From contig OX155980.1 in the NCBI GenBank assembly GCA_944548615.1, positions 4,500,069 through 4,564,068 on the forward strand: a stretch of 64,000 nucleotides of DNA, read 5' to 3'. Source of the stretch: Micropterix aruncella (Eukaryota; Arthropoda; Insecta; Lepidoptera; Micropterigidae). The stretch's first letter is position 1, and each line of letters opens with the position of its first letter. This document shows positions 2,580 through 58,680 of this stretch, one piece after another. The notes beneath the pieces are model-generated. The model made no database searches and had not been told where the DNA came from. It saw nothing but the letters and a program-made list of their open reading frames with translations. A program made the position numbers and the translations under genes.

Positions 2580-3508
2580 TGTCTAGACAGGTTCCTAATG
2601 GTTCCGTGCAGCTTAGGCCTGATGACCCACTTGTGTTCTTAGGTCGGCTTAACTCACGGTTCAGCTCCTATTCGGTAGCATCCTCGAAGAGCTTCAACCT
2701 GGAAGGGCCGCTGTGAACTCTGCCTGCGGCTGTAACCTGCAGTCGTAGGCGGTTAGGATCAGACGTGCGGATCCGGGGAGACACATTGGGCCTAACTGGG
2801 TGGTTTGCGTACCAGGCTGTGTCAGCCACGCTTATGCAACCCGGCGAATAACCGTAGGAGTTTTGAGACGTATGTATATTAGTGCGGAGTTAGCTGCTGA
2901 CCTGGCGCCACATATCCTTAACCTTTCGGAAGCCAGTCATTCCATGCAAACTTTTTGAAGACCTCGAAAATTTGTTTGTAGAAGGTGTGTGCAAGCATAC
3001 TGAATTATAACGGTGGATTATTCAATGGCAGGCTACAATGACAAGCTTTTACCGCAGTGGAGGAAGAAATAGAGCAGATAATTGAATAAATACAGATATA
3101 ATACGGATAATACGAAAAACGCCGATCGGCGTGCGTGGCCACCCAGGGGTTAAAAACGTTTCATTGGCTACCCAATCCCGAGTAAGCTTGACGGGCAAAG
3201 GAAGCCACGCATCCGGATAAATAAATTATTAATTACCGTTATCGCTTACGTCAATCTATGACCAGACTGGAGGATGGATGAATCCGTCTAAATCTAGTAG
3301 TAAGGGCGTGAGGTTGACCCGCTGCATTCACTTCCCAGTACCTCGCGGTAAGGCGTTGGGCTCTTACGAGCTTGTGACGTATTATAGACTGTGGACTGTG
3401 TTAGTAACTAAGCTTCTGAGTTCCTTCCACTGGAGATACGATGTCGTTATAACTTCCAGTGGTGACGGGTTCGCCTGTAATATTTGACAACCCGCAATGT
3501 ATAGACAG
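2580..3508 (+). mobile_element. Family A copy A1 (old, divergent) with target duplication
   Basis: This is a divergent member of the noncoding family A. It is recognised by GTGCAGCTTAGGCC near the 5' end, the GGCTACCCAATCCCGAGT and GGGCAAAGG blocks, a TCGCGGTAAGGCGTTGG block and the 3' hairpin GTGACGGGTTCGCCTG. The element proper is 2591-3497. It is flanked by TGTCTAGACAG (2580-2590) and TGTATAGACAG (3498-3508), an 11-bp direct repeat with one mismatch. At 907 bp it is longer than young copies because about 200 bp of unrelated AT-rich sequence lies around 2930-3130. Its close relative on the opposite strand is at 53765-54345. No conserved open frame is shared with other copies. Confidence 0.7.
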
Positions 3509-4059
3509 CCGACTACAACGCAGTCATATTGTAGTCACCGCTTCGAATTGCGGATGCTTCGCATTAAAATACAATGTATGACAGCAATGCGATTGTATAC
3601 TACTTGGCTAGACCTTTACCCCCTCGATATTGTTATTATCAAAGGACAACATTCGCTCCACACGATGCAGGCGTGTGACTATTATCATCTAAATGGTAGC
3701 TTTATATACATTGCGAAGTGATTTTACAGCTCGGGCGCATTAATGGCAGTTTTTAAATCATTTGTTTAAAGACTCCATTATAATAATATGTAAAAATATT
3801 CTAATCATCCGACGCTATAAGACTGGTCTTATTTTGTTTCGGTGAGTGACATTCAGAATGATAAAACAGACGGTTGTTTACACTACATATTATCTTTTCC
3901 GTAAGGGTCGGTACCATGTAAACCCGAAAAACAACACTTCGTAGGATCGCAACTGCTGAAAGGTTTGAATTATATAACTTTAAATTATACACAGATAAAG
4001 GACTAGTAAATTATTCACAGATAAAAGACGAAGTACATTCCGAAGTCTCATTTTGTTAT

Positions 4060-4270
4060 TTTTTATTTTTATTATTTTTTTAATTTATATATTTTGTGAA
4101 ACATACAGCGCATACAATATACATACTTATACAGGAAAAACGTAAAACATTCGACCGATAATCGTTTCCTGCAATAGCTACATTTTTAAGAGATATTAGT
4201 ATATTTACACTAAAAATTACGAATTTAAATTAAATATTGAGTTTAAATAGAAAGTCACTGAGAAAGGCGC
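4060..4270 (-). repeat. LINE 3'-untranslated fragment (family F)
   Basis: The segment matches the region near 52015-52110, sharing ACATACAGCGCATACAAT and CCGATAATCGTTTCCT. At 52 kb this sequence lies just 3' of a LINE reverse-transcriptase tail on the minus strand. The copy here is therefore most likely a 5'-truncated insertion of that LINE's 3' untranslated region. Confidence 0.55.
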
Positions 4271-4927
4271 TCTAAAGATAGTAAACCCAATAATTTTACA
4301 AATTATTCACAATCAATATGGATAATAAAATATGCTACATAATACAAAGAAAACAAAAAGTAATTTTTAATTTAGAAGTAAGTTCGCTTTGTGTCTATGG
4401 GGTTGTTGGTTTATGGGTGTTGGTGGGTTTGTGTGATGAGGAGCGTATTTGTGTATGTTTGGGTATCTGTTTTAAGCCATATGCGCCTGCCGTGCTCAAA
4501 CAGGGACACCTCAAAATATACCCTCATTTTTTTTTATTACCATGACAAGTTTATTTAAAGTACGGTATTGTTGAGGTGATTAGTGCGTCTTACATTTAAT
4601 ATCAAATATTTTGGATAAAATAATTCCTTAAAAGGTATTTTAGTATCAGGAATAAAGTGGATTAGCGAGTTGAAGTAACTATCAAGTGTTTTTTTTGTTC
4701 ACGTTAATAAAATCTTATTTTTTTGCTTAACCCTTTGTGAAACATTGTTTACTTTGTAATAAAAATAGGATATCATAAAAAATATAGTTTTCTGAGCCGT
4801 GAACTTTATATTGATGTCCCCAGTTAGAGACAGTGGGCACATGAGGAGTAAAATAGTCATCCATGTCAAGACAGGAGTTTGCAGTGAGTAACAATTACCA
4901 TAGACTCCGGAAGCCCTGGAGGCTATT

Positions 4928-5150
4928 ATGGGTGAAAAGGATTCAGACGTTGAACTTGATATTGTATTGTACCAAGTGTCCTCACTGATGAGGAAGAAGG
5001 CGATGAAGATAACAACGTTGCCAATGATATGCCAAGAGATATTCCTGGAAATGTCGAGGTTTTTATGAACAGAGAGGAAGAGAAATGGGTACAGATGAAG
5101 AGGCGACAAACCGATCTTGAGCCCCGGTGGGGTAAGTGCGATCCTACAGG
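4928..5150 (+). pseudogene. piggyBac transposase, acidic N-terminal part
   Basis: The frame begins MGEKDSDVELDIVL and shifts once. It then reads PSVLTDEEEGDEDNNVAND followed by MPRDIPGNVEVF, the acidic leader typical of piggyBac transposases upstream of the catalytic domain. A frameshift lies near 4970, and the frame dies about 60 codons later at the edge of the next insertion. This is a transposon remnant, not a domesticated gene as far as this sequence shows. The 136-codon frame on the opposite strand is its shadow. Confidence 0.7.
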
Positions 5151-5326
5151 TCCCGCAACGAGAGCTGCACGTTCACAGTACTCACACTAATGCAATGTCG
5201 TGACGCGCGACGTGACTTTCACTTGATGCGCATCATAAAAAGTCTTTCCGTCTCTCTCGCTCGCGCACTGTATAGTGACATTGCATTAGTGTGAGTACTG
5301 TGAACGTGCCAGCTCTTATCGCGTGA
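5149..5326. mobile_element. Small MITE with about 50-bp terminal inverted repeats
   Basis: The two ends are near-perfect reverse complements over roughly 50 bp. They begin GGTCCCGCAACGAGAGCTG on the left and GGTCACGCGATAAGAGCTGG when the right end is reverse-complemented. Both continue through a shared CACGTTCACAGTACTCACAC block. About 75 bp of unique sequence separates the arms. No clear target duplication is visible. It lies where the piggyBac N-terminal frame is interrupted, so it probably inserted into that element. Confidence 0.65.
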
Positions 5327-5454
5327 CCTGTACCTACGACCACACTACTTTTTTTGTGAATACTGTACAACAGCGGCGCGAAAAGCTAGTTACTGATTTA
5401 AAAAATAAAAATCCTGTTACAATTTTGGAAAAAAAAATTATCAGGAAGTAAAGG

Positions 5455-5492
5455 ATATTTATTTATTTTATTTATTTATTTATTTATTTATC
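5455..5492. repeat. (TTTA)n microsatellite
   Basis: About eight TTTA units follow GGATATTTA. It lies in the AT-rich part between piggyBac fragments. Confidence 0.8.
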
Positions 5493-5699
5493 CTATTTTT
5501 TATAGTTACATAAAAAAGATTGTGTTCATTTTTTTTAACACATTTTAAAAGAATACATATGAAGAAAATCGCGAAAGGGCATTAACTTGTCAGGATTACA
5601 TCACTCCACTAGGTATACGCCTGTGTTGGGGTGATGGATATATAGTTCTGTGGTATTATTTGCTGAGCCTGTAGCCTTGCCTGCTGTCCTTCTTCTGTC

Positions 5700-5940
5700 T
5701 TAAAAAAAAAACGATACGTAATATAATTTAGCATAATATAATATAAATAATATAATATAACATATTACAATATAATATAATATCATATGTTATAACATAT
5801 AAAATAATGTAGCATATTTATATATAATAGTATAATAGTATAACATAATAAAATATAACATATTATAATCTGTATATCTGTATACATATCCATAATTTAC
5901 ATCTATATATCCTATAATCTGTGGTTAGAAATAAAATATT
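5700..5940. repeat. Low-complexity AT-rich tract 3' of a LINE fragment
   Basis: The tract is dense in AATATAATATAA-type repeats. It lies immediately 3' (in minus-strand sense) of the LINE tail at 5941-6204 and may be that LINE's 3' untranslated end with expanded simple repeats. Confidence 0.5.
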
Positions 5941-6204
5941 TTAATATATCATACTTTCGTTCTCTTCTCTAGTATAATTTGAGAGCCAATGAGACACCCG
6001 TCTCTTGAACTGGTTGTCGGTTATGTTAAGATCTGAGTTAAATATATTATAGAGTTTAGGTCCGAGGTATGCGTAGTGTCGTTGTCCGTATACAGTCCTC
6101 ATTTTTGGTTGAATCTGTTTGTCTTTGTGTCTAGTGTTGTGTTTGTGCTCTGGTTTGTCTTTATCTTTATATGATTGTTTAATATTCAAAATTGTATGCA
6201 TCAC
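5941..6204 (-). pseudogene. LINE reverse transcriptase, C-terminal tail
   Basis: The minus-strand frame contains HNTRHKDKQIQPKMRTVYG, YLGPKLYNIFNSDL and FKRRVSHWLSNY. This is the arrangement found at the very C-terminus of jockey/CR1-type LINE polymerases: a tyrosine-glycine-rich block, a PKLYN block, then FK-R-WL. The fragment starts abruptly at the piggyBac core sequence (about 6204), so this 5'-truncated LINE copy most likely interrupts the piggyBac element. Only about 85 residues remain and no catalytic residues are included. Confidence 0.7.
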
Positions 6205-7130
6205 ATAAAAAGCATGATTTCGACATTACTGTTGAAGAACTGAAAACGTTTTTGGGCATTCTCGTTCTATCTGGTTATCACACTTTGCCTCGAGAACGTT
6301 TGTATTGTCTTTAGACAAGGATTGCAACGTGCCTATTGTTTCTAGGGCAATTAGAAGAAATAGATTTTTAGATATCAAGAAATTTCTACATTTCTGTGAC
6401 AATGCTGCTGCTGCCGAAACACCAGATAAAATGTTCAAGGTACAGCCTCTTACCGATATCCTCACGAAGAAATTTATACAATAGGGGATGTTTCATACGA
6501 ATCTGTCAATAGACAAATCAATGGTAAAATACTTTGGTCGTTATCCATCGAAACAATTCATTAGAGGTAATCCAGTACGCTTTTGTTACAAACATTGGAT
6601 GCTTGCTAGTGCTGATGGCTACTGTTAGCGTTTGATATTTACTGTGACAGATCACAGGTAACCAGTAATGAGCCGTTAGGCACAAGAGTGGTAAAAAACC
6701 TGTTGAACAAGCTCAATGCAGATCCTAAAGACCACATTGTGTTCTTTGTCAATTTTTTTACTAGCTTTGCATTGCTGCGGGATTTATGGAAATCTGGCTA
6801 CCGCGCCACTGGAACTGTGCGGGAGGGAACAACCAGCAAATGTCTGCTCATACCCGTTAAGGAGATAGAAAAAGAAAAATCGTACTGACTTTGACTTGAC
6901 TTTTGACACGGCCAACCAAATATTGTTTGTTCGCTGGCTGGACAGCAGCGTTTGCACCATGTGAACTAACTACGATAGTGTCCCTCCGTTGGGTAAAGTG
7001 AAGCGCTGGAGTTCAGTTGAAAAGAAGAAAACGGTCGTAAATATTCCGCAAGTATTTGTAAGCTATAATAAAGGTATGGGCGGAGTCGATCAAGCCGATC
7101 AGACGATTTCTTTGTATCGTACTACTATAC
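6204..7130 (+). pseudogene. piggyBac transposase catalytic core, broken
   Basis: Reading plus-strand frames in turn gives HDFDITVEELKTFLGILVLS, then DIKKFLHFCDNAAAAE, then NLSIDKSMVKYFGRYPSKQF and the hallmark block GMGGVDQADQTISLYRT. These are the DDE_Tnp_1_7 landmarks of piggyBac transposases. At least four frameshifts or in-frame stops lie between them, for example after LPRERLYCL and near 6484. The core stops within SLYRTT at about 7130, where an inserted sequence begins. It continues in the piece at 7675-7997. It cannot encode a working enzyme. Confidence 0.85.
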
Positions 7131-8765: not shown

Positions 8766-9120
8766 GGGCAAAATATGCTTTTGGTCCGCGATAGATTCAA
8801 ACCGAATCACCGCTGAACATACGTCAGGTAGAGGTCGCGCAGGTGACCTTGAATCCGTGACCAGTCGGGAGGACGGAGTTATACTGGAGGTTAATTTCAG
8901 ACGGAGATATTCTTCCAAAACTGGTAGTTAGGGAGAGAAGCTGGTGCCTTTCCCGGTGCCTCGCCATAAGGAGTTGGCCTCTAACAGGCTTGTTGGCGGA
9001 GCTAGACATTAGGTTGTCTTGTCTCTAAGTCTTCTACGCTCATCCCACGGCTGAAAGAATAATCACATATCGTTATACCAGCCTGGGATGACGTTCGCCC
9101 GTTGTAGTCGACACCGCCCT
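8766..9120 (+). mobile_element. Family A copy A2, 5'-truncated
   Basis: The copy starts within the family A centre (TGGTCCGCGATAGATTC-like) and runs through GTGACCTTGAATCCGTGACC, TCGCCATAAGGAGTTGG-like and the 3' end ACGTTCGCCCGTTGTAGTCG. It belongs to the subfamily with TCTTCCAAAACTGG also seen at 41.6 and 56.3 kb. It abuts copy A3. Confidence 0.7.
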
Positions 9121-9133: not shown

Positions 9134-9540
9134 GGGTGCTAATGGGCCCTGTTGCAGTTTGGACAAACGCACGGGTCAACACCCATCCGGCGGCTTCCAT
9201 GCAGAAGTGCGAGCCCGAGTAGGAGCGGGGGTAGTTGGTAACCTTACGGCAACTGCTTTTGAAACGGCCATTCGGCTACCCGATTCCGGGTGAAGAGCCG
9301 GGTAAAGGATGCTGTGGCCCGCGATAGATTCGGTAGACACCGTATCACCGCTACGTAACTACGTAAGGGAGAGGAACACGCAAGCGACCTCGAACCTGTA
9401 ACCAGTCGGAAGACCGGAGTAATCTGGTTGCAACTGGAAGTAAGGGCGCGGGTGTCGTCCCGCTGTTTGATAAACCTGGTTATCTCGCGGTAAGGCGTTG
9501 GTCTCTTAGGAGCGAGTGGCGTAACTAGACAGTCTTCTAC
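9134..9540 (+). mobile_element. Family A copy A3 with internal deletion
   Basis: The copy begins GCTAATGGGCCCTGTTGCAG, keeps the CGGGTCAACACCCATCCGG block, then skips about 130 bp to AGCGGGGGTAGTTGG. It continues to the TCGCGGTAAGGCGTTGG block. It ends at TAGACAGTCTTCTAC, where a mariner fragment begins. Confidence 0.7.
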
Positions 9541-9705
9541 CGAACGATTCTTCTACGGTGAAGATTTTCTCGTCAGTAAACAGAATTCTTCTGAGAGCAT
9601 TCTTCACGTACTGGCAACGCAGCGCTTTCGATTTTTGCTTCCGTTTTAGCTCCAACGCCTCCGCGAGTAGGTACCCGGTATGTTGCTTGTATTGTATGCT
9701 CGTAG
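9531..9705 (-). pseudogene. mariner-like transposase fragment
   Basis: The minus-strand frame reads ELKRKQKSKALRCQYVKNAL and then RRILFTDEKIFTVEESF. The ILFTDEKIFTVE block is the first catalytic aspartate region of mariner-type DDE/D transposases. Only about 55 codons are in frame; the sequence further 5' shifts frame. It is a dead fragment joined directly to a family A copy. Confidence 0.75.
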
Positions 9706-18347: not shown

Positions 18348-19310
18348 GTACACTCAACTTACAATATATGACTATTTTTATACCAGAACATTACGTATAT
18401 CCAGGTAAAAAATCTTTAGACCCCTTTTATTGCGAAAATCCTATACGTTTTGCAAGACGTGCGCCATTCGCCAGCCATAGATTTAGTCACATTTAAAATA
18501 TCTTAAATAGCAATACAAGAATATAAGCCATATTACATAAGCCCCAAGAATAAAGGCTCAAAATTAAATTTTAAATTGTGTATCTTGTCCCTTTTTATTT
18601 TTTGGTTAAAATTCTCCCCCGAAAAAAAATCTCTAGTGCCACCTTTATTAAATGCACTCTAGAATATGTCAAATTATTTCCCCGGAGCCGAAGTAGAACC
18701 TTCACTTCACACAGAAATACTAATAATGAGAATTTGTCCCCAATACTCTCGGCCAATATAAAAATGATAATACAGTCGTTAAAGTAGGGGAATCATAATA
18801 TTAAAAACTGATAAAAATGGCATTGTTGCGACGAGAGTCGGAAATCGGTTCTTCAATACGACAGAATGAGAATTTAATATCAAATCGTCAGTATCTACCT
18901 CGCTGTACTACATGTATTTGACATGAGAATGTTGCAGCTATAATTGTTGCCGCCGATGACAAAGTAAATTTTAAAATTCAAACAAAAATTTTCATATATT
19001 TTGTAAATTTGTAATTTTAAAGTGATATCTTTGTTAAAAACTAGTTCAGATAACTAAATAACTTTGTTAAAAACCCGTTCAGAGTTTCTTGGGCATCTTC
19101 TCTGGCGGTCGTAATCGAATGTCCACACACGGAATTATATAAAATTTAAACGATAATCCGAGCATCAAGAGAGATGAACTGGGTGGCATAAGAGGAGTGG
19201 ATGCCTGAAGCAGGCGTGTGAAGAGTGAGGCAGCTGGAGCAGCTGTAATTGAGAGAGATGGCGATAGACGCTTGTAGATTGGGAGCTAATGGGCGAGCTA
19301 TCGATTGGGA
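18348..19310. other. Unassigned AT-rich DNA
   Basis: No bounded element is recognised. Low-level similarity to other repeats cannot be judged by eye. Confidence 0.4.
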
Positions 19311-19316
19311 GCTAAT

Positions 19317-20612
19317 GGGCCCTTGCTGACTTGGCCACGAAGACCCGTTAGTTCGGGGTCGGTCACACTCGCGGGTCAACACCCATCCGGCGGCCTCCAC
19401 GCATGAAGAGCGAGTCCGGGTAAGACTCTGGCCTTAGGACTAGTTTCCCCCAGGAGTCAACCTTCTGGCGCTACTGGGCGGCCTGCGCACCGTGCGGCGT
19501 AAGCCAATCGATTGTGCATTCTGACTAACAGTCGGGGGAGTCTGGAAACAGTACTGTCTCCTATAGAGGGGAGCTAATGGGCCCATGATGAGGTGGCCAC
19601 GATGACCCATGTGTTCAGGGTCGGTCACACTCACGGGTCAACACCCATCCGATGGCCTCCACGCATAGGGTGCGAACCTGGGTAGGACACTGGGTCAACC
19701 AGTCTCCCCTGGGAATCAAACCTCTGGCGCTCCTGGACGGTCTGCACAACGAGCGGCGCAAGCCAATCGACTGTGCTCTCCGACTAACAGTCGGGGGAGT
19801 CTGGAAACTGTATTGTTTCCTATAGAGCGGGGGTGGTTGTCTACCTTACGGCGACTGCTCTTGAAATGACCATTGGCCATCCGATCCCGGTTCAGAGTCG
19901 GGCAAAGGACGCCTTGGTCTGCGATAGATTCGGTGCACACCGTTTCACCGCTTCGTAAGGGAGAGGACCGCTCAAGCGACCTCGAACTCGGAACCAATCG
20001 AGAGACCGGAGAAATCTGGTCACAATTGGAAGTGAGGGCGCGAGTATCTCGAGCCCGCCGGGTTTATTCCTGGCTCACTCGCGGTAAGGCGTTGAACTCT
20101 CACGGGTTGTGACGTAGCTGGACGTAGGATTGTACTGTCCAAAGTCTTCTACGTTCACTGCAGGGCGACAGAACGACTAATTGTTAAAACGTCCTGTGGT
20201 GACGGGCTCGCCCGTTGTAGTCGACACCGCAAGATGTCTCCTATAGAGCGGGGGTAGTCGTTGATCTTACGGCGACTACTATTGAAACGACCATCGGCTA
20301 CCCGATGCCGGTTGAAAGCCGGACAAGGGATACCGTGGTCCGCGATAGATTCGGTTGACACCGTTTCACCGCTACGCAAGGGAGAGGACCGCGCAATCGA
20401 CCTCGAGCTCGTAACCAGTCGCGAGACCGGAGTAATCTGGTCGCAACTGGATAAGGCGTTGGCCTCTTCCGTGCATGTGGCGGAGCTTGACGATGAACTT
20501 TTTTGTCCTCAGTCTTCTGCGCTCACCTCGTGGGAGACAGAACGATCATATTTCGTTAAAACTTCCTGAGGTGACGGGTTCGGCCGTTATAGTTGACAGC
20601 TCTAGTTGTAGC
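19317..20612 (+). mobile_element. Family A copy A4 (outer), interrupted by copy A5
   Basis: The 5' part (19317-19568) runs from GGGAGCTAATGGGCCC through the CTGGAAACAGTACTGTCTCC block. The 3' part (20235-20612) resumes at TGTCTCCTATAGAGCGGGGG and ends at GACAGCTCTAGTTGTAG. Just upstream a 26-bp partial duplication repeats GGGAGCTAATGGGC. Joining the two halves over one copy of the 14-bp duplication rebuilds the family order. Its own outer target duplication is unclear; only a short TTGTAG is shared by the flanks. Confidence 0.75.
19555..20248 (+). mobile_element. Family A copy A5 (inner, young) with 14-bp target duplication
   Basis: The element is 19569-20234 (666 bp), from GGGAGCTAATGGGCCCATGA to GTCGACACCGCAAGA. 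It is flanked by TGTCTCCTATAGAG at 19555-19568 and 20235-20248. It sits inside another family A copy at a position unrelated to the family's own ends. The 3' region carries GTGACGGGCTCGCCCG, which can form an ACGGG/CCCGT-type stem. Frames on both strands (up to 93 codons) shift between copies, so coding capacity is unlikely. Confidence 0.85.
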
Positions 20613-31701: not shown

Positions 31702-32456
31702 AAGCGCTGGGTGTAGCTTTATTATGGTAGCTAATGCAGTTGGCCACGAAGACCCATTTGTTCGGGGTCGGTCACACTCACGGGTCAACACCCATCCGGC
31801 GGCCTCCACGCATGAAGTGCGAGCCCGGGTAAGACTCTGGCCTTAGGATTAGTTTCCCCCAGGAGTCAACCTTCTGACGCTCCTGGACGGTTTGCGCACC
31901 GTGCGGCGTAAGCCAATCGATTGTGCATTCTGACTAACAGTAGAGGGAGTCTGGAAACAGTACTGTCTCCTAAGGAGCGGGGGTAGTCGGTTGACCTTAC
32001 GGCGACTGCTCTTGAAACGACCATCGGCTACCCGATTCCGTTGACACCGTTTCACTGCTACGTAAGCGCTGAGTGTACCTTTATTATAGGGGCTAATGGG
32101 CCTTGTTGCAGTTGGCCACTAAGACCCATTTGTTCAGGGTCGGTCAAACTCATGGGTCACCACGTATGAAAAGCGAGCCCGGGTAGGACTCTGGCCTGCT
32201 GGCTGATTTACCCCAGGAGTCAATCTTGTGGCGCTCCTGGGCGGTTGGCGCACCGGCGGCGTCAGCCAACCGATTTTGCATTCTGACTGACAGTCAGGGG
32301 AGTCTGGAAACAGTTCTGTCTCCTATAGACCGGGGGTAGTTGCTTCACCTTACCGGGACTGCTCTTAAAACGACCAATAGGCTACCTGATTCCGGGTAGT
32401 AGCCGGATAAAGGGCGCCGTGGTCCGCGATAAATTCGGCAAACGTCGTAACACCGT
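31702..32456 (+). mobile_element. Family A copies A6 and A7, 3'-truncated, with a 24-bp direct repeat
   Basis: A6 (31726-32063) starts TGGTAGCTAATGCAGTTGG, lacks about 55 bp of the centre and stops in the middle of the family. A7 (32088-32456) starts GGGGCTAATGGGCC and stops soon after GATAAATTCGGC. The sequence AAGCGCTGGGTGTAGCTTTA with ATTAT precedes A6 (31702-31725) and recurs with two changes before A7 (32064-32087). This repeat could be a target duplication of A6 or a segmental duplication. It does not start with TGT, unlike the intact copies. Confidence 0.65.
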
Positions 32457-38005: not shown

Positions 38006-39381
38006 TGTGAAATTTGGTGGGAGTTAATGGGCCCTTGCTGAGTTGGACAGGAAGACCCATTCTGTTCAGGGTTGGTCACACTCACGGGTCAACACCTATC
38101 CGACGGCATCCACGGATGAAGTGCGAGCCTGGGTAGGACTCTGGCCTTATGGTCAGTTTCCCCTGGGAATCAAACTTCTGGCGCTCCTGGACGGTCTGCG
38201 CAGCGTGCGGCGTAAGCCAATCGACTGTGCACTCTGACTAACAGTCGGGGGAGTCTGGAAGCAGTACTGTTTCCTATAGAGCGGGGGTGGTTGTGGACCT
38301 TACGGCGACTGCTCTTGAAACGACCATCGGCCCTCCGATCCTGGGTGAACAGCCGGGCAGAGAACGCTGTGGTCCGCGATAGATTCGGTATACACCGTTT
38401 CACCCCTTCGTAAGGGAAAGGACCGCGCAAGCGACCTCGAACTCGTAACCAATCGAGAGACCGGAGTAATCTGGTCACAATTGGAAGTAAGGGCGTGAGT
38501 GTCGGCCCGCCGGGTAACATTTCTGGCTATCTCGCGGTTAAGGCGTTAACCTTTTACGGGCTTGTGACGTAGCTAGATGGTGGACTGTTTTGTCCCCAAG
38601 TGGAGCTAACGGGCCCATTATGAGTTGGCCACGATGACCCATGTGTTCAGGGTCGGTCACACTCACGGGTCAACACCCATCCGACGGCATCCACGCACGG
38701 GGTGCGAACCTGGGTAGGACACTGGGTCAACCAGTCTCCCCTGGGAATCAAACCTCTGGCGCTCCTGGACGGTCTGCGCACCGTGCGGCGCAAGCCAATC
38801 GATTGTGCTCTCCGACTAACAGTCGGGGGAGTCTGGGAACTGTATTGTTTCCTATAGAGCGGGGGTGGTTGCGTACCTTACGGCGACTGCTCTTGAATTG
38901 ACCATTGGCCATCCGATCCCGGTTCAGAGCCGGGCAAAGGACGCCTTGGTCCGCGATAGATTCGGTGTACTCCGTTTCACCGCTTCGTAAGGGAGAGGAC
39001 CGCGCAAGCGACCTCGAACTCGGAACCAATCGAGAGACCGGAGAAATCTGGTCACAATTGGAAGTGAGGGCGGGAGTATCTCGAGCCCGCCGGGTTTATT
39101 CCTGGCTAACTCGCGGTAAGGCGTTGGACTCTCACGGGTTGTGGCGTAGCTAGACGTTGGATTGTTATTGTCCAAAGTCTTCTACGCTCACTGCAGGTCG
39201 ATAGAACGACTAATCGTTAAAACGTCCTGTGGTGACGGGCTCGCCCGTTGTAGTCGACACCTCAAGATGTCCCCAAGTCTTCTACGCTCACTCCATGGAG
39301 ATAGAACGACTAATCGTTAAAACTTCCTGAGGTGACGGGCTCGCCCGCTGTAGTCGACAACCCAAGTTGTGAAATGTTGGT
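38006..39381 (+). mobile_element. Family A copy A8 (outer), interrupted by A9
   Basis: The element is 38019-39367 including A9, and 672 bp without it. It starts GGGAGTTAATGGGCCC and ends GTCGACAACCCAAGT. The flanks TGTGAAATTTGGT (38006-38018) and TGTGAAATGTTGGT (39368-39381) are a 13-14-bp duplication of the family B target, differing by one base and one indel. The unoccupied target sequence can be read in the other family B copy near 58474 (TTGTGAAATCTTGGTCGG), confirming the insertion point. Confidence 0.87.
38591..39278 (+). mobile_element. Family A copy A9 (inner) with 11-bp target duplication
   Basis: The element is 38602-39267 (666 bp, the same length as A5), from GGAGCTAACGGGCCC to GTCGACACCTCAAGA. 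It is flanked by TGTCCCCAAGT at 38591-38601 and 39268-39278. It lies in the 3' part of copy A8, which resumes with CTTCTACGCTCACTCC. The sequence is close to A5, so both belong to a young subfamily. Confidence 0.9.
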
Positions 39382-41450: not shown

Positions 41451-41880
41451 TGCTCTTGAAACGACAAGTCCGTCACCCGATCCGTCACCCGATCCCGCAT
41501 GAATAAGCTTGGAATAGAATGCCGTGGTCCGCGATAGATTTGGTAGACACCGTATCACCGCTTCATAAGGGAGAGGACCGCGCAAGCGACCTCGATCCTG
41601 TAACCAGTCAGGAGGTAGAAGGTATCCTCAAGGTTATTTCCAGACGGAGATATTCTTCCAAACTGGTAGTCAGGGTGCGAGGCTGCCCGCTGGTTACCTT
41701 TCCCGGTGCCTCGCCGTTAAGGCGTTGGCCTCTGACGGGCAGGTGGCGTAACTAGACTGTGGATTGTTTTTCGTCCCAAGTCTTCTGCGCTCACATCACG
41801 GGAGACAGAACGATCAATATAGTTGAAACTTCCTGAGGTGACGAGTTCGCCCGTTGTAGTTGACAGCTCTAGTTGTAGGC
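41450..41880 (+). mobile_element. Family A copy A12, 5'-truncated
   Basis: It starts AACTGCTCTTGAAACGAC and runs through CCGCGATAGATTTGG, GGGAGAGGACCGCGCAAGCG and TTAAGGCGTTGGCC to GACAGCTCTAGTTGTAG. It has the TCTTCCAAACTGGTAGT variant shared with A2 and A11. Confidence 0.75.
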
Positions 41881-44199: not shown

Positions 44200-44640
44200 A
44201 TTTGCCATATTTATGAAGATTCCAAACTTCAAAACTCCATGAGAGCCCTATCACGGGACTGTTCTTTGGTTTCGGGGTCATAGCAATGAACCCACGTAAA
44301 TATTTTGCCGATAAAATCTTCACCACCCTATTAAAACAGCTCAAGATTTTCTTTACAAATGTTAACTCGGCTTTTGGGGTCATAGCAATGAACCCAAGTA
44401 AATACTTTGCCGATAAAATCTTCACCTCCCTATTCAAACAGCTCAAGATTTTCTTTACAGATGTCAACTCGGCTTTTCTTCTGCAGAGCTGTGAGCATTC
44501 TAGGGACCCACCTTGCACTGGCATTTGTCATCCCCAAATTTGTATGTATAATTTGTAATATTGATGGTTCCGAAACTCCACACTCCTTTGCTAATTGAGA
44601 CAGTTTTACTCGCATATTTTTCATAACCATCTTTGATAGC
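44200..44640 (-). pseudogene. mariner-like transposase pseudogene with internal duplication
   Basis: The minus strand reads MRVKLSQLAKECGVSEPSIL and QIIHTNLGMTNASARWVPRM, then LTALQKKSRVDICKENLELF. These are the helix-turn-helix and WVPRML linker typical of mariner transposases. After a frame change, YDPETKEQSRDRALMEF corresponds to the YDPE-K-QS block after the first catalytic aspartate. Between them a 102-bp segment is duplicated in tandem (44274-44375, 44376-44477), repeating the VKILSAKYL reading. The catalytic aspartate context (normally DETW) is not recognisable. The element is dead. Confidence 0.8.
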
Positions 44641-44797
44641 TGATTTACACTCGCGCCTCGCGCCTCGTGTCCGTGTCTCGTCTTGCGCCTCGCGTGATCG
44701 ACGGAAAATGAGTTTCTGTTTACACTCTCGTGGTGCGTGCGAGCTAGCACATATATATGCCAAGAGCCAGCGACAAAAAATTGAAAGAGTTTTGGAA

Positions 44798-45313
44798 AAG
44801 CTGATACTTTCCGATCACACAATATTTTGGCCATAGAATGTCGGGGTACAGTCAGCAGGCTAGATTTCGGGACACCTGGCGCTGGCGTACTAGGAAAGGT
44901 GTAATTTTAATTATTATCCCAAAGTGTTTTGGAAAAGCTGAAAATTCATCAGTGATGCAATAAATAACTCGAAACATATGGTCAGACTGCTTCATAACCA
45001 AACGCGTGGCGTCAACATCTCCATACATGTCACGCATCGGTCTATGACGTATCGGTCTACTGTGCCGTGCAATATAATGATACGGACATGCTGACGCCAT
45101 GCGTTCGATTATGAATCAATCTGACTATTTGTTTCGAGTGCTTTATTGCATCCACTGTATACTGATTAATTTTTAGCTTTTTCAAAATACTTTAGGGGTA
45201 ATAATTAAAATTACAACTTTCCTAACACGTCAGCACCAGGTGTCCCGAAATCTGGCCTGTTGTAACCCCACATTCTACGGCCAAAATACTGTCTGATCTG
45301 AAAGTATCAGTTT
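44798..45313. mobile_element. Palindromic MITE (family J), copy 2
   Basis: Outer arms (about 44798-44949 and 45158-45313) and inner arms (44950-44993 and 45115-45157) are inverted copies. Landmarks are GATACTTTCCGATCA, TTTTGGCC, GGGACACCTGGCGCTGGCGT and CAGTGATGCAATAAATAACT. It lies beside a mariner pseudogene, so it may be a mariner-derived MITE, but I found no TA duplication to prove it. Confidence 0.75.
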
Positions 45314-45630: not shown

Positions 45631-46219
45631 AATAATTAAATATTATAAATAGGATAGAAAACGAATTTACCGCGTGAAATTTGTAGGACCCGACGTTTCG
45701 GTGACGTTGCAGCCGCCGTTGTCTAGGGTAGACTGAAGAGCTGTCAGTCCGTTGTTTTGCGGGTAGGCCGCAAACCGCTGCCGCCACTGCGTAGGTTATA
45801 ACGGTGGTGGGGGGCTGGGCTCGGAGCGCGGGAATTTTTAAAATCCGTCTTGCACACAACACTCACTGTATCCTGTTTTACGTCTTTGCGTTCGGCGTTC
45901 GGCGGCGGGAACATTTTAAGAAGAGGGTTCCACGTAGAAGAGAGTTTGTAGCCGTCGTCTCTATTGAAGTTCGGAGTTCTTCTTATTTCAATGGCTTCCC
46001 GGATCATGCGAGGAAAGTAGAATTGTTCCTTGGATAGAACAATGGGATTTTGAAACTGCATCCAGTGGTTACTTCCGCTATCCAATATATGTTCGCAGAT
46101 CGCCGATTTTTCTCGCTGAACGTTTTTAACAGCTTTGATGTGTTCTGTCAGTCGCGTTTCTATCCTATTTATAATGTCAAACAACCGCGATAGTCTTCGA
46201 TTTTATAATAATTAAATAT
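45631..46219 (-). mobile_element. Penelope-like element, 5'-truncated, with 13-bp target duplication
   Basis: The insert (45644-46206, 563 bp) is flanked by AATAATTAAATAT at 45631-45643 and 46207-46219. In minus-strand order it begins with part of the pseudo-LTR (GACTATCGCGG...), goes directly into a GIY-YIG endonuclease tail, then ends with another pseudo-LTR portion (CCGAAACGTCGGGTCC, CGCGGTAAATTCG). The 13-bp duplication length equals that of the insertion at 27827-28252. The polymerase part is missing. Confidence 0.88.
45744..46184 (-). pseudogene. GIY-YIG endonuclease C-terminus of a Penelope-like element
   Basis: The 146-codon frame reads RIETRLTEHIKAVKN, then SAICEHILDSGSNHWMQF and FYFPRMIREAIEIRR. 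NFNRDDGYKLSSTWNPLL follows. The R-x-R-x-x-EH and REA-EI-x-P-NFNRDDG-L-x-S-W order is characteristic of the endonuclease at the C-terminus of Penelope-like retroelements. The GIY-YIG core itself is lost: the frame begins in fused repeat sequence (MFDIIN). The catalytic arginine/glutamate region is retained. It would nick target DNA to prime reverse transcription, but this copy is partial. Confidence 0.85.
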
Positions 46220-46767: not shown

Positions 46768-47715
46768 CCTCAAGGGAAATAACAATATTTTAAACCTTGC
46801 AGTGTCGATGTGCATTCGCGCACCGATGCGCGCAGACATTCTCCAGACTTATGGCGATCCTGGGTTATTAAAAATTACCCTATTTGTCGGGACACTATTG
46901 AAGTTTAAAATAAAAAAGATGAATCGTTAAAACTTCCTGAGGCGACGAATTCGCCTATATAAATGTGACAAATATATCGTATCTTTTGAAATATAAAATT
47001 TAAAAGTTTATGTATGGAGATCCCAGAGAGAGAGAGAGAGAGAGATAGAGAAAGAGAGACATATAGAGAGAGGGTGTGGTTTAAGGGGTTATTTTATTGT
47101 ATTATATTATTTCTCCTTTTTTCGTTCGGTATTCACGCACGACATTTGCGCGGGATAATTAAATACACACGCTAATTTTCTCTCGTAGTGGGGATGACAG
47201 ATCATTACATACCTATTTTGGGTACTGCATACCTGAATGAACCCCTAAATGAAAACAACCTTTGACACGGGATTAGGAACAGCGAGTCCCCTGTCCTCTG
47301 CTGTATATGGGTGTAATGACACCCCTTATACAGCAGAGGACAGGAGTAATGAGCGTACAAGGAGCATTTTTTTAAAGGAAGAAATCATTCATTTTATTTG
47401 CATAGTTTTAATCTAGAATTTAAATAAAATATCACAAAATGCTCTCTCTCTCTCCCCCCCCTCCCTCCCTCCCTCCCTCCCTCCCTCCCTCTCTCTGGGA
47501 TCTCCATACATAAACTTTTAAATTTTGTCACTACGATATGTTTGTCACATTTATATATATTCATCTTTTTTATTTTAAACTTCTATATTGTCCCAACAAA
47601 TAGAGTAATTTTTAATAACCCAGGATCGCCATAAGTCTGGAGAATGTCTGCGCGCATCGGTGCGCACATGCACATCGACACTGCACGGATTAAAATATTT
47701 TTATTTCCCTCGAGG
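46768..47715. mobile_element. Element with about 280-bp terminal inverted repeats
   Basis: The left arm (46768-47045) and right arm (47440-47715) are inverted copies, starting CCTCAAGGGAAATAA and, reverse-complemented, CCTCGAGGGAAATAA. Shared landmarks are GCAGTGTCGATGTGCA, AGACATTCTCCAGACTTATG and TATGTATGGAGATCCCAGAG. The inner ends carry (GA)n and (CT)n/(CCCT)n repeats. The left arm alone contains about 34 extra bp resembling the family A 3' end. The 390-bp centre holds a hairpin at 47290-47344 and no transposase. No target duplication is visible. Confidence 0.8.
47290..47344. repeat. Hairpin in the centre of the long-TIR element
   Basis: Arms of about 25 bp starting CCTGTCCTCTGCTGTATA pair with TATACAGCAGAGGACAGG; GGGTGT and ACACCC extend the stem around a small loop. 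Confidence 0.85.
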
Positions 47716-53480: not shown

Positions 53481-53489
53481 AGAGCAATA

Positions 53490-53760
53490 GTCAATTCTGG
53501 CCAATAGTTACTATGTCTCTTTCGAAGTACCCTTCATTAGAAGCCACAAATTTCTTCCAACGATCCTCTGACCTTCCGAAACACTTGTTATATTCAACGT
53601 TCAGAATTATCTAGTAGCTGCTTCGTCCCATTCCGTTTCGTTGCGTCTACGTCGTCAAATCTTCTCCTTTTAAAACAAACTTGAGAGCATATAAATCCCA
53701 CATGCTTGAATTTTTGTAAACATTTAAAATATCTCAAAAAATAGAATGTTTGGTCAAATT
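53490..53760 (-). pseudogene. mariner-like transposase C-terminus
   Basis: The minus strand gives KRRRFDDVDATKRNGTKQLL and, after frame changes, RSEDRWKKFVASNEGYFERD. GRRFDDVD-IK-N-KQLL followed by W-K-VAS-G-YFE-D is the typical C-terminus of mariner transposases. Two frameshifts or stops separate the pieces. The fragment adjoins the 3' break of family A copy A13. Confidence 0.75.
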
Positions 53761-53764
53761 CAAA

Positions 53765-54345
53765 TTCACAGTCAGTCTTCGCCATCAGCCCGTAACAGTA
53801 CAACACCTTACCGCGAGATACTGGGAAGTGCAACCAGCAGGCGAACCTCGCGCCCTTACTCTTAGATTTGGACGAATTTCTCCAGAATTTCTGCAGGACA
53901 AATTTCTCCGAATTACTCCGCTACCTGATGTAGACGGTAATTAAGTTACTGAATTTATCGCTGATCCTTGGGATCCTTTGCCTGTCAAGATCACTCGGGA
54001 TCGGGTGGCCAACGAATAATTTCTAAGAATAGGTGACGCCAGGTTAACAGTTACCCTGCTTCTTAGAAAACATACGTCTCCAGACTCCCCCGGTTATTCG
54101 CCGGATTGCGTTAGCGTGGCTGACACAACCTGGTACGCAAACTGCCCAGTTCCGCCCGAGTTGTTCCCCGGATCCGCGCGCCTGATTCCAATTCTACAAC
54201 TGCAGCCGCATGCAGAGTTCACAGCGGGCCTTCTATATAGGTCAAGTACCTATTCGAGGAGTTTACTGGGTGGGAGCTGAACCGTGAGTTAGGCCGACCT
54301 AAGAACATAGTAGGCCATCAGTCCCCAGCTGCACGGAAGCATTAG
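53765..54345 (-). mobile_element. Family A copy A13 (old subfamily), 3'-truncated
   Basis: On the minus strand it starts GGTTTCTAATGCTTCCGTGC and passes through GCCTACTATGTTCTTAGGTC, CCTGTCAAGATC-complement blocks and GGATCAGCGATAAATTCAG. It ends at the TCTCGCGGTAAGGTGTTG block without the 3' hairpin. It is the closest relative of A1 at 2591. The 64-codon frame at 53750-53944 is its antisense shadow. Confidence 0.7.
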
Positions 54346-54349
54346 AAAC

Positions 54350-55170
54350 CAATGTTGCATAGTCGTACTAATAAGAAAACACTATAAGAGTTCTAACATA
54401 TGAGCAGATTATACTTGCCCGTTGAACTCACTCACGTTGAACGCCCGTTGAGCCCGTTGACTATTATGGAAACGGCGAAAAAATAACTCTCCTTATTGTG
54501 TTCGAAAAATGCAAACTGAAGACTTCATTGACTGTAAAGGATTATCTGGAAATAAAAATATGCATACTCAATAATGACTGGGACAAGATATTTTCACAAA
54601 AGAATAAAACAATAAAAGTACCTACACGATTTTGAACACAAGACACAACGAAAGGTCACCCTCAAAACCCACCGAACTTTGAAACACTTTACATTGCACT
54701 TATTATTAATTCATGACATGCAAATTATTTTGTTTATTTATTTATTCGCAAAACCCCATTATAGTTAAAAGGATCACAAATCTTTATCACACATTGACCC
54801 GTATTAGGATTAAATTATCAATCGCGATTAATCGCGTCAATCGTGATTAACTATAGTCAGGATTAATTAATCGTGACTATAATACGTGACTTTTAATACA
54901 TATCTCCAAAATTTATATTATCACAAATGTGAGCTTTCACCTTACCACCCATTCACTCGAAGGGGGAGTGAGTGGGTGGTAAAGTGGACGCTTATTATGT
55001 GGCAAAACAGCCGTCATAAACCTACCATAATCGGTCGTTAGTCCGGAATCCATTGCTTACCCCCCGGAAGTGTAAAATAGGGACCGACTCCGGTCTGTAA
55101 ATTCCATGGCAGCTCCGTTTTTGTATTTTATTTATATGTAGGTACATAAACTTTCATCGTAGAAAAGCTT
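54350..55170. other. Unassigned DNA with palindromes
   Basis: Repeated GATTAATCG-type blocks at 54818-54880 and a hairpin at 54938-54986 are the only structures seen. Confidence 0.45.
54938..54986. repeat. Hairpin
   Basis: CACCTTACCACCCATTCACT pairs with AGTGAGTGGGTGGTAAAGTG with two mismatches around a short GC-rich loop. Confidence 0.8.
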
Positions 55171-55174
55171 GAGA

Positions 55175-55773
55175 GGTGGCCATTCTACCTAAAGGCCCTC
55201 CACGCGAATCTGGGAAGAGCGCTCGACACTGATTGGGAGGTTCGGACTTCACTTTCGCACGGCTGATAACGCCGAGTACCGCTTCATCCGGTAGGAGCTC
55301 GTCCACCTCATCTCCGGGCTAGCCGACCGCGACTTTGAGGTCACCTACGCCCGGATGATTTACGGGGGGGGGGGGGGGGGGTATTACGCCGTCCATCAGA
55401 AGATCGAGCGCTGGCGCGGAGTGGCTGACAGAGTTGCACTTCATGAAAGTCACCGCGGAGGCTTGACGAGGCAGGAAAGGCCTGAAACAGCGGCACCGCT
55501 GCCAGAAATTTAGGCACAGCAGTCACAACTGCCACCGGTCGCCAGCGTGCGTACGATTTGCGGTGAAGAGCATGCGGCCAAGGACCGCCCGCCATGCCGA
55601 AGACCTCCGCGCCTACTTGCGGAAACTGCGGGCAGCACCATCCGGCGAACAACCGGGGATGCCCCTGCTTCCAGGCGTGGAAATCCGCCAGACAAAACAG
55701 CAGCAGCAAGGTACTCCGCGAGCAGTGTCCGCCGTCCCTACGGTATACTGACTAGCCAGGTTTTCGGTCTCGG
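55175..55773 (+). pseudogene. jockey-type LINE ORF1 (gag-like) fragment with zinc knuckles
   Basis: In shifting plus-strand frames it reads LKALHANLGRALDTDWEVRT and EVTYARMIYGG, then RTICGEEHAAKD and TCGNCGQHHPANNRGCP. The last is a C-x2-C ... H ... C zinc knuckle (55618-55665) like those in the nucleic-acid-binding ORF1 protein of jockey-clade LINEs. A G-run of about 18 at 55363-55380 and several frameshifts break the frame. It would package LINE RNA; here it is dead. A family A copy interrupts the region at 55789. Confidence 0.7.
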
Positions 55774-56518
55774 TGTCGGTCGAAAGGTTGGTGGTGAACG
55801 GTTTCGTGCAGCTTGGGCCACAAGATCCATTTTGTTCTCGGATCGGCTCAACTCCTCGAGTGGAAGGCTACCCCGGGTAAGACTCCCGTGTCTCAGGCCT
55901 CAGCGCTGGTGGATTGGTTTCTCTCGGCGGGATTGCATCCCGGCGCCACTGGACATTTTGCGCACCGGTTGGCGAAGCCAATCGGTTGTGCATTCTGACA
56001 TTCTGCTGAAGGAAATTCTGACATTCTAGATTCTGCTGAAGGGGTCTGGAGACTATGGAAATACACTGTTTCCTAAGCAGCGGGGGTGGATATTTCACCT
56101 GATGTCATGCCACTCTTGAAATGACCTTGGTCCACTCGATCGTGTGTAGTACTACGGGCAAAGAACGCCCAGGTCAGCGATAAAGTCAAACTGAATTACC
56201 GCTGTAATACAACAGGTAGAGGTTGCGTAAGCGACATCGGACGCGTAACCAGTCGGGAGGACGGAGGTATCCTGAAGGAGATATCCTGCCAAAACTAGTA
56301 GTTAGGGGGTGATGCTGCCCGCTGGGTTCCTTTCTCGGTGCCTCGCTATAAGGCGTTGGTCTCTAACGGGTTGCTGGTGAACTAGACAGTAGATTGTTTT
56401 GTCTCCAAGTCTTCTACGCTCATCCCACGGCTGAAAAAACGATCTATATCGCTATATCAGCCTGGGGTGACGGGTTCGCCCGTTGTAGTCGACACCGCCA
56501 TCCTGTCGGTCGAAAGGT
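55774..56518 (+). mobile_element. Family A copy A11 with 15-bp target duplication
   Basis: The element is 55789-56503 (715 bp), flanked by TGTCGGTCGAAAGGT at 55774-55788 and 56504-56518. It belongs to the older subfamily (GTGCAGCTTGGGCC near the 5' end). It carries an internal duplication of GAAGGAAATTCTGACATTCT near 56000. The 3' end is GTGACGGGTTCGCCCG followed by GTAGTCGACACCGCCATCC. The 160-codon frame at 55547-56029 crosses from the LINE fragment into family A and is an artefact. Confidence 0.88.
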
Positions 56519-56519
56519 C

Positions 56520-57000
56520 TTGAGTTCTCACGAGACCTTTCAAGAATCAAAATCGTTGATTAGTCTCGGAATCGCTCATTGCTAGTATCAACTGCTCAAA
56601 TTGTCTTTTTTTTTTTGATAAATGAGCTCAATAAGAGAAAAAGAATATTTCATTAGAAGCTGCCATACTAAAAGGAACCTAGCCCATCGTATGCGTGTGT
56701 TGAAAGTACATAGCTACGTGTACGCTTAACTTACTTCTAGTTATTCTTCTTTTTGCCATGTGGAAATGGCCCACCTTGTCGCCTAATGGCAACCACTTCC
56801 AACCGCTATCCGTCGATCATCAATCTACGTATTTATTGACCGCTCCCAGGACTGCTTAACTTCGGTGACCTGGCGAGAGCAGGTATTACAAAATTATTCG
56901 AGTGACGCGAATGTGAATACTGAGTTAAGATTACCTACTCGCGAGTATTGATTGCACTCCAAGTCCGCGACGACGTTAGGCCGTGGAATATAATAATAAC
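56520..57000. other. Unassigned DNA
   Basis: Nothing recognised. Confidence 0.4.
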
Positions 57001-57004
57001 TAGA

Positions 57005-57115
57005 ATATAAGCGTGTTCATAAAAGGATATTTGCTATGCATAGGAGCCGCATTTCTATTTACGTTTATCGGCCGATCCCAAAAAGGACTATTTTTGAAGT
57101 GTATATAAATAGTTA
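57005..57115. repeat. Family I repeat
   Basis: GCGTGTTCATAAAAGG, TTCGCTATGCA-like and GGCCGATCCCAAAAAGGACT blocks recur at 59584-59680. Only fragments are seen. Confidence 0.5.
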
Positions 57116-57199
57116 AAAAAAAAACACTAAAAACACGTTTTACACGGCTATGATACAATATTCCACCATGGAATGCCAGTGCCTATCTTCGTGTTAAAA

Positions 57200-57330
57200 A
57201 GATTATAGTTGAAATCGGTTCACCAGGGGGCGTACTAGTCATATATCATCCTCGAAATATTAGACTTAGAGACTTGAAATTTGGTATACAGATGCATTGT
57301 TGGGCCGAAATCACGTTCACATTGTAGATA
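57200..57330 (+). repeat. Family B repeat, internal fragment
   Basis: It matches the central part of family B (GTTGAAATCGGTTCACCAGG, CTCGAAATATTAGAC, GACTTGAAATTTGGTATACA). It is separate from the copy that starts at 57471. Confidence 0.7.
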
Positions 57331-57470
57331 TTATTCCGAGTGGGTACTGCAGCAATGGCGGGTCAAAACAGGTTAAACATTTGCTTTTATTATGTTTATT
57401 TGATAGCTTTTAGATGTATGAGTGTATTTTAATTTTCGTTACAATTTAAAAAGAATGGTTTTGCCAGCCC

Positions 57471-58680
57471 AAGACTTTCCCGGCAAGTAACCAAAGACTG
57501 ATTTCTTCGCAATATTAATCTTAATGTCTGTCTGGCTGTGTAACTGCTTGTCTCTCTGTCTGTCTGTCTGTCTGTATTACTTGGGAGTTAATGGGCCCTT
57601 GCTGGGTTGGCCACGAAGACCCATTCTGTTCAGGGTTGGTCACACTCACGGGTCAACACCCATCCGACGGCCTCCACGCATGAAGTGCGAGCCTGGGTAG
57701 GACTCTGGCCTTGGTCAGTTTCCCCTGGGAATCAAACTTCTGGCGCTCCTGGACGGTCTGCGCACCGTGCGGCGTGTGCCAATCGACTGTGCACTCTGAC
57801 TAACAGTCGGGGGAGTCTGGAAGCAATACTGTTTCCTATAGAGCGGGGGTGGTTGCGTACCTTACGTCGACTGCTCTTGAAACGACCATCGGCTATCCGA
57901 TCCTGGCTGAACAGCCGGGCAAAGGACGCTGTGGTCCGCGATAGATTCGGTATACACCGTTTCACCGCTTCGTAAGGGAGAGGACCGCGCAAGCGACCTC
58001 GAACTCGTAACCAATCGAGAGACTGGAGTAATCTGGTCACAATTGGAAGTAAGGCCGTGAGTGTAAGCTCGCCGGGTAACACTCCTGGCTATCTCGCGGT
58101 TAAGGCGTTGGCCTCTTACGGGCTTGTGGCGTAGCTAGACGGTGGACTGTATTGTCCTCAAGTCTTCTGCGCTCACTACAGGGAGATAGAACGACTAATC
58201 GTTAAAACTTCCTGATGTGACGGACTCGCCCGCTGTAGTCGACAACCCAAGTTGTCTGTATTCCTCTACGATAGCGCCCAAACGCCTAATCCGGTTAGGC
58301 TTTTGGCATGCAAGCATCATTGGCCATGGCAAAATGAGCAAGTTGAACAAGTTGAAAAGATTGTGGTTGAAATCAATCCACCAAGGGGCGAACTATTCAT
58401 ATATCAATCTCGAAATATTGCACTTAGAGACTTGAAATTTTGTACCCAGATTCCTTGTTGGGCTGAAATCAAATTGTGAAATCTTGGTCGGAATGTCCCA
58501 TGTACAAGCTACAGTAATAATATTTAAATCCCGCCATACATTTAAATCAAATATAAGCGCTGTCTGTTGGCGCTTAGAGGGGCGCTTTTCGATTTTATTT
58601 GTGAAATTAATATTCAGATGAAATCAGTCCTTGGCTAAGTAACCGAGGGACTGATTCCCGACAAGTGCCGGGAAAGTCTT
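57471..58680 (+). mobile_element. Family B element with 15-bp inverted termini, hosting family A copy A10
   Basis: The left end AAGACTTTCCCGGCA (57471-57485) and right end TGCCGGGAAAGTCTT (58666-58680) are perfect inverted repeats. Excluding the family A insert, the element is about 525 bp. A (GTCT)n tract at 57550-57575 precedes the insertion. Non-coding; no target duplication outside the termini was identified. This is the clearest evidence that family B is a TIR-type DNA element. Confidence 0.75.
57569..58266 (+). mobile_element. Family A copy A10 with 10-14-bp target duplication
   Basis: The element is 57583-58252 (670 bp), GGGAGTTAATGGGCCC to GTCGACAACCCAAGT. The exact flanking repeat is TGTCTGTATT (57569-57578, 58253-58262); allowing two mismatches it extends to 14 bp. 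It is the most complete young copy not interrupted by another element and a good reference for the family. The 122- and 116-codon frames on opposite strands are not preserved in A5, A8 or A9 as one shared frame. Confidence 0.88.

What the first reader, a model, noticed from the sequence alone, without database searches (positions are those of the whole stretch)
2580..58266. Family A: an unassigned retroposon-like family whose target duplications all begin with TGT
Six copies with both ends readable have direct target duplications: TGTMTAGACAG (A1, 2580/3498), TGTCTCCTATAGAG (A5, 19555/20235), TGTGAAAT... (A8, 38006/39368), TGTCCCCAAGT (A9, 38591/39268), TGTCGGTCGAAAGGT (A11, 55774/56504) and TGTCTGTATT (A10, 57569/58253). 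Length varies from 10 to 15 bp, yet the first three bases are constant. Variable-length duplications with a constant 5' triplet next to the element 3' end (CAAG followed by TGT) fit target-primed reverse transcription, with annealing of the RNA 3' end to a nicked TGT site. Young copies are 666-672 bp with constant ends (GGGAGYTAAYGGGCCC to GTCGACAMC...CAAG), have no shared reading frame and carry a conserved 3' hairpin (GTGACGGGYTCGCCCG). I recognise no named family. An A-box-like TTGCTGAGTTGG and a weak B-box-like GTTCAGGG near the 5' end hint at a tRNA-type promoter, but weakly.
Basis: partly seen in the sequence, partly recalled or inferred. Interest (0 to 1): 0.85.

Follow-up and report, generated by a model that had tools for sequence, protein, structure and literature searches.

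The report
Abundant tail-less non-coding retroposon family
About four percent of the DNA sampled from an insect-like genome belongs to one family of roughly 670-base non-coding "jumping" sequences that copy themselves through RNA, mostly into sites reading TGT and without a poly(A) tail; which enzyme moves them was not found.

Summary
All six duplications are at the stated places. Of 41 full copies (3 from the window), 33 carry a duplication, against 0.85% of mismatched flank pairs; lengths are 9-18 bp in 31 of 33, median 14. "All begin with TGT" is too strong: of the 33, TGT stands on both sides in 14, only at the 3' junction in 6, not at the 3' junction in 13. Duplication copies disagree at the first three bases in 14 of 99 comparisons, at positions 4-10 in 7 of 229, so these bases are partly copied from the element's RNA end; targets also favour C|TGTC. 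This fits target-primed reverse transcription with short 3' annealing. The consensus is 672 bp. The family covers 4.0% of 200 kb sampled; a 3' motif occurs 29,881 times. A 3' stem shows compensatory changes. Four loci or regions gave no small-RNA match in Rfam; the tRNA-type promoter is weak. None of the few LINE and Penelope-like 3' regions seen shares the tail. I file it as a new, long, tail-less SINE-like family; repeat databases were not available.

The parts
2591..3497 (+). copy A1, older subfamily, 907 bp, TSD 2580-2590 / 3498-3508
8766..9119 (+). 3' half of an A11-type copy
   Evidence: blastn and nhmmer
9159..9557 (+). partial family A copy (consensus 54-120 and 261-559), no 3' end
19307..20609 (+). 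older host copy (19307-19571 and 20235-20609) split by copy A5
19569..20234 (+). copy A5, nested, TSD 19555-19568 / 20235-20248
31738..32036 (+). 5' part of a family A copy (consensus 23-321)
32094..32455 (+). 5' part of a second copy (consensus 7-387)
38019..39367 (+). copy A8 (38019-38601 and 39268-39367) split by copy A9, TSD 38006-38018 / 39368-39381
38602..39267 (+). copy A9 nested in A8, TSD 38591-38601 / 39268-39278
41489..41876 (+). 3' half of an older copy ending GACAGCTCTAGTTGT
53743..54348 (-). A1-type copy, partly preserved; outer limit approximate
55789..56503 (+). copy A11, older subfamily, 715 bp, TSD 55774-55788 / 56504-56518
57583..58252 (+). copy A10, young, 670 bp; TSD 57569-57578 / 58253-58262 with four extra bases ACTT before the head
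58172..58244 (+). 3' stem-loop region of A10: long stem with compensatory changes, inner hairpin, small hairpin with GGG/CCC stem, then GTAGTCGACA; outer limits approximate
   Evidence: fold and pair counts on 34 tails

Best explanation
Family A is a non-autonomous, non-coding retroposon (a long SINE-like element). Its RNA, whose 3' end can fold into a conserved stem-loop plus a small GGG-YUCG-CCC hairpin followed by GUAGUYGACA..HAGUUGU, is recognised in trans by the reverse transcriptase of an autonomous element not identified here. The endonuclease nicks the bottom strand at C|TGTC sites (bottom strand 5'-GACA^G). The freed ..ACA-3' end pairs with the UGU at the RNA 3' end and primes cDNA synthesis; the top strand is cut some 9-18 bp away, giving variable duplications. 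Synthesis often reaches the RNA 5' end, sometimes stops early or adds a few bases. Shown: ends, duplications and their variable length, target bias, excess mismatch at the first three junction bases, truncations, compensatory changes in the stem, abundance in a sample. Inferred: the trans-acting enzyme, the nicking, the order of cuts, the role of the stem-loop.
For: 33 of 41 copies have duplications against 0.85% of mismatched pairs, median 14 bp. Target logo C|TGTC. The two duplication copies disagree in 14 of 99 comparisons at junction positions 0-2 but in 7 of 229 at positions 4-10 (Fisher p 0.0004), so the first bases are partly not target-derived; TGT only at the 3' junction in 6 of 33. 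5'-truncated copies: L042:8130-8185, about 64 bp with TGTTACTGCGCCTA/TGTCACTGCGCCTA read by eye, and a copy at about L008:2439-2680 (-) that starts near consensus 430, its duplication not checked. 3' stem: 31 cells changed on both sides against 11.8 shuffled, 0 of 500 shuffles, 3-14 when slid. No terminal inverted repeats reported for A10.
Against: 8 of 41 copies show no clear duplication. Single-base differences at the junction can be later mutation: of the 6 cases with TGT only at the 3' junction, 4 differ by one base and only L008 and L021 by more. No partner: ten stretches downstream of RT-like matches gave no tail except one that is a neighbouring family copy, and four further LINE 3' regions show other ends. 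No orthologous empty site from another genome was available. Compensatory changes partly reflect subfamily ancestry, and two of the five measures do not exceed shuffles.
Confidence: 0.85

Rival explanations
1. It is an internally deleted derivative (SIDE) of a LINE: its head is the LINE's 5' region and its last 160 bp the LINE's 3' region, and that LINE is now rare or extinct.
For: No similarity to small RNA genes in the stretches tested; head and last 160 bp can be aligned between the young, A11 and A1 subfamilies; such elements exist in Lepidoptera (Persaeus from the CR1 element Zenon, PMC6740152, abstract and part 1 of the Results read).
Against: No LINE sharing head or tail among the few seen; no recurring foreign sequence upstream of the tail in the listed part; Persaeus and Zenon have poly(A) tails per PMC6740152, family A has none.
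Confidence: 0.3
2. It is an ordinary tRNA- or 5S-derived SINE with an unusually long body.
For: TTGCTGAGTTGG in the young head fits an A box; 12 of 500 shuffles give as good an A+B pair.
Against: No tRNA or 5S match in Rfam at E<=1 in L006, L023, L058 and window 55700-58300; ARAGORN finds nothing in the window; the best boxes lie elsewhere in A11 and A1 (17 and 60 of 500 shuffles as good).
Confidence: 0.12
3. It is moved by the very young, very abundant Penelope-like element of this genome.
For: That element is the youngest retroelement I saw: most of the 150 scored rows are 99% identical to the window piece, nearly all without stops.
Against: Its 3' end in two fetched copies, L089 and L090 (..CCTATTTATAATGTCAAACAACCGCGATAGTCTTCGA), is unlike family A, and the window copy seems flanked by a 15-bp repeat ATATTTAATTATTAT, no TGTC site (read by eye, few copies).
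Confidence: 0.05
4. It is a DNA transposon or Helitron derivative.
For: High copy number of a non-coding element with fixed ends.
Against: Variable duplication length, 5' truncation, no terminal inverted repeats reported for A10, excess mismatch at the first junction bases.
Confidence: 0.02

Closest known systems
Lepidopteran SINEs PxSE1-5 and relatives (PMC8010984; abstract and passages read)
   Same: Non-autonomous and abundant; PxLINE1.1, with 13-bp duplications, is the proposed partner of PxSE5; one relative (EpSE1) is said to lack poly(A), poly(T) or simple repeats at its 3' end
   Different: The ones in the passages are 252-389 bp with tRNA or 5S heads, and tails seen there include GT and ATGT repeats; family A copies are 670-907 bp, with no such head recognised and no tail
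Persaeus SIDEs and LINE Zenon (PMC6740152; abstract and part 1 of Results read)
   Same: Non-coding, no Pol III promoter, no small-RNA similarity, up to 115,283 copies and 3.68% of a genome
   Different: 263-386 bp in the paper's table, poly(A) 3' end, T6 duplication in the first copy described, both ends traced to Zenon; family A is longer, has no poly(A) and no LINE found for its ends
Stringent-type SINE/LINE pairs sharing a 3' stem-loop (recalled; title and start of abstract of PMC5135761 seen in the listing)
   Same: Conserved 3' stem-loop expected to be read by the RT
   Different: Partner LINE with the same tail not found

Membership tests
TPRT-type non-LTR retroposon | Variable-length target duplications | tested here: met
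   33 of 41 copies; 31 of the 33 are 9-18 bp, the others 21 and 25; median 14
TPRT-type non-LTR retroposon | 5' truncation with intact 3' end | tested here: met
   L042:8130-8185 and a copy at about L008:2439-2680; how frequent it is was not measured
TPRT-type non-LTR retroposon | No terminal inverted repeats | tested here: met
   none at the ends of A10 among the pairs (one copy tested)
SINE (small-RNA-derived) | Head derived from tRNA, 5S or 7SL RNA | tested here: not met
   no such Rfam match at E<=1 in L006, L023, L058 or window 55700-58300
SINE (small-RNA-derived) | Internal Pol III promoter | tested here: inconclusive
   A/B boxes weak and in different places in the three subfamily heads
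SINE (small-RNA-derived) | Tail shared with a partner LINE | tested here: inconclusive
   none found, but only a small part of the genome's LINE 3' ends was seen
SIDE (internally deleted LINE) | Both ends match an autonomous LINE of the genome | tested here: inconclusive
   none found among the few LINEs seen
Catalogued repeat family | Match in Repbase, Dfam or SINEBase | not testable with these tools
   no such library on hand

The most novel reading that the evidence does not exclude
The last 40 nt (GGUGACGGGYUCGCCYG..GUAGUYGACA..UUGU) behave as a detachable priming module: reverse transcription starts on this tail and can jump, at its 5' edge, to the 3' end of other RNAs, including 3'-shortened and oligoadenylated family A RNAs and possibly a polyadenylated host RNA. 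The module would be used by an enzyme that is not one of the LINEs examined here.
Probability: 0.15. Interest if true: 0.65.

Novelty: new member of a known kind. Interest (0 to 1): 0.42.

Why it matters
A non-coding element that makes up about 4% of the DNA sampled from a gigabase genome, without poly(A), microsatellite tail or recognised RNA-gene head, is a clean natural data set on how an RNA 3' end meets its target nick: many young insertions, readable duplications, and junctions that disagree with their target and so separate RNA-derived from target-derived bases. Finding its enzyme would define an RNA stem-loop and a four-base target for TPRT.

Tried and rejected
Rfam on the whole window at gathering scores: 0; at E<=1 on L006, L023, L058 (one weak bacterial hit, L058:6056-6261, outside the family) and on window 55700-58300 (0). 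ARAGORN on the window: 0. IMG/VR scan with the tail: 0. HDV-like ribozyme at the 5' end: by eye no partner for GGGAGTT in the first 100 nt, none in Rfam. LINE partner: alignment of the tail to ten stretches downstream of RT-like matches (the single hit, L056, is a neighbouring family copy), upstream inspection of tails in held loci, a pattern with three non-family letters upstream (467 matches; of those listed most read as family A with indels or joins, a few have upstream letters I cannot place, no foreign string recurs), 3' regions of four further LINEs (ends judged by eye), a LINE near an ATTGT repeat: no partner. Penelope-like partner: tail and target differ in the few copies seen. The window piece 46925-46955 looked like a second element with the tail but is about 30 bp inside a MITE-like repeat. 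Template jumping: 109 matches of a tail with upstream letters other than CCTG against 29,881 with CCTG; the 20 fetched were picked by me, A-rich ones first, so their A-richness proves nothing, and some (CGTTAAAA then tail) may be plain 8-nt deletions; other junction positions were not tested. My notes say hits in 14 of 20 random stretches; the listing gives 12 of 20.
Full report
Setting. The window lies at G000:C51:4500069-4564068 of a 1.08-Gb genome in 742 contigs. (TTAGG)n arrays near both ends of contig C1 (the listing covers C1 only) point to an arthropod; many contigs of 15-43 Mb plus one of 85.7 Mb look lepidopteran to me, which is inference from contig sizes only.

Observation. I fetched the 40 best matches to copy A10. 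The 672-bp consensus starts GGGAGTTAATGGGCCC and ends GTAGTCGACAACCCAAGT; the 40 copies are 96.3-98.4% identical to it over the aligned part. For 41 full copies (3 from the window, 38 from elsewhere; L001 and L040 dropped as duplicates of other rows, partial copies left out) the best duplication score was compared with all mismatched pairs of flanks: 33 of 41 reach 9, against 0.85% of mismatched pairs; 8 of 41 do not. Duplication lengths are 9-18 bp in 31 of 33, 21 and 25 in the others; median 14. The ungapped matching can take in a base or two of the element.

The TGT. At the 3' junction TGT stands in 26 of 41 and TG in 34 of 41, against 1.85% and 5.8% in 200 kb of the genome. Where the duplication is clear (33), TGT is on both sides in 14, only at the 3' junction in 6 and not at the 3' junction in 13. 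The six (L004, L005, L008, L021, L029, L034) had TGC, CGT, ATA, GCT, GGT and TCT in the upstream copy. Four of them differ by one base, which later mutation could explain. As a set, however, the two copies of the duplication disagree in 14 of 99 comparisons at the first three junction positions and in 7 of 229 at positions 4-10 (Fisher p 0.0004); L008 and L017 differ at all three bases. So part of the junction letters come from the RNA. The empty-site logo is C|TGTC. Both target choice and RNA end therefore contribute. Among 56 tail ends matched in held loci, the letters after the AG are TTGT in 29, TTGC in 6 and ATGT in 3 (some copies are counted more than once).

Abundance. In 20 arbitrary 10-kb stretches the consensus covers 7,953 of 200,000 bases (4.0%), with hits in 12 of 20 stretches and none in the reversed control. 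The exact motif CCTGNGGTGACGGGYTCGCCYG occurs 29,881 times, control 0. If the sample is fair this is about 43 Mb and of the order of 100,000 copies or fragments; that is an extrapolation. 10 of 41 full copies have other family sequence within 120 bp, partly by self-insertion (A5, A9, L002).

Anatomy. Three subfamilies appear in the window: young (A10, 670 bp), A11 (715 bp) and A1 (907 bp); the head and the last 160 bp can be aligned between them. Across 34 tails an 11-pair stem has 31 cells changed on both sides against 11.8 in shuffles (0 of 500 reach it), and 3-14 when the partner is slid (these totals cover the whole 20-pair structure, and the double changes all lie in the 11-pair stem). 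Two measures, pairs with a double change and further pair types, do not exceed the shuffles (283 and 246 of 500 as high), and related sequences inflate the rest. The inner hairpin and the GGG/CCC hairpin show no double changes.

Origin. No tRNA, 5S, 7SL or ribozyme match at E<=1 in L006, L023, L058 or window 55700-58300. The A/B-box test gives 12, 17 and 60 of 500 shuffles as good for the young, A11 and A1 heads, with boxes in different places.

Partner. 36,393 first-look RT candidates exist; 150 were scored. Four LINEs with long frames appear, by eye and from one copy each, to end in AATG, AAAT, AACT and AAG repeats. Ten stretches downstream of RT-like matches in held loci show no tail of their own. 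A pattern for the tail behind non-family letters gives 467 matches; in the listed part no foreign upstream string recurs. The partner is unknown, and most LINE 3' ends of the genome were not seen.

Joined tails. 109 tails follow letters other than CCTG, control 0. Of 20 that I picked, most join the tail to a shortened or altered family A body at differing points, some after an A run, and L065 joins it to a sequence with AATAAA and seven A. This fits template jumping but also deletion, and for L065 a truncated tail insertion; it is 0.4% of the counted motifs and other junction positions were not tested.

Literature. The listings of searches show no title or abstract start describing this family; that is limited to the open library and to those terms. 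Repeat databases could not be consulted.

Verdict. A real, abundant, non-coding TPRT retroposon family with a strong but not absolute TGT signature; new to me, of a known kind.

Noticed in passing
window 45744-46202 (-), about 45650-46210: 3' end of a Penelope-like element (identified from recall; no Pfam hit). Most of the 150 scored genome rows are 99% identical to it, nearly all without stops, frames up to 912 aa, often as inverted pairs about 1-4 kb apart; several of six fetched copies carry inverted pieces of the element at the 5' side.
   Followed up: partly
window 46925-46955: A 30-bp piece of the family A tail (with a compensated stem change) inside a MITE-like repeat whose inverted copy at 47532-47715 lacks it; no duplication seen.
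   Followed up: partly
L065:350-421: Sequence with AATAAA and seven A directly followed by the family A tail; possible mRNA-tail chimera, or a truncated tail insertion with an unclear duplication.
   Followed up: partly
L005, L008, L017, L007, L014, L025 five-prime junctions: Extra bases ending TTTT or TTA between the duplication and GGGAG recur, perhaps added at the cDNA end.
   Followed up: no
window 19555-20248; L069: Two family A insertions (A5 and L069) with the same internal TGTCTCCTATAGAG site of an older copy at their 3' flank.
   Followed up: no
window 44430-44906 (-): Frame that looks like part of a DNA transposase (mariner-like, recalled; no Pfam hit).
   Followed up: no
G000:C1 ends: (TTAGG)n arrays near both ends, broken into blocks, as in insects with telomere-inserting LINEs (interpretation recalled).
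   Followed up: no
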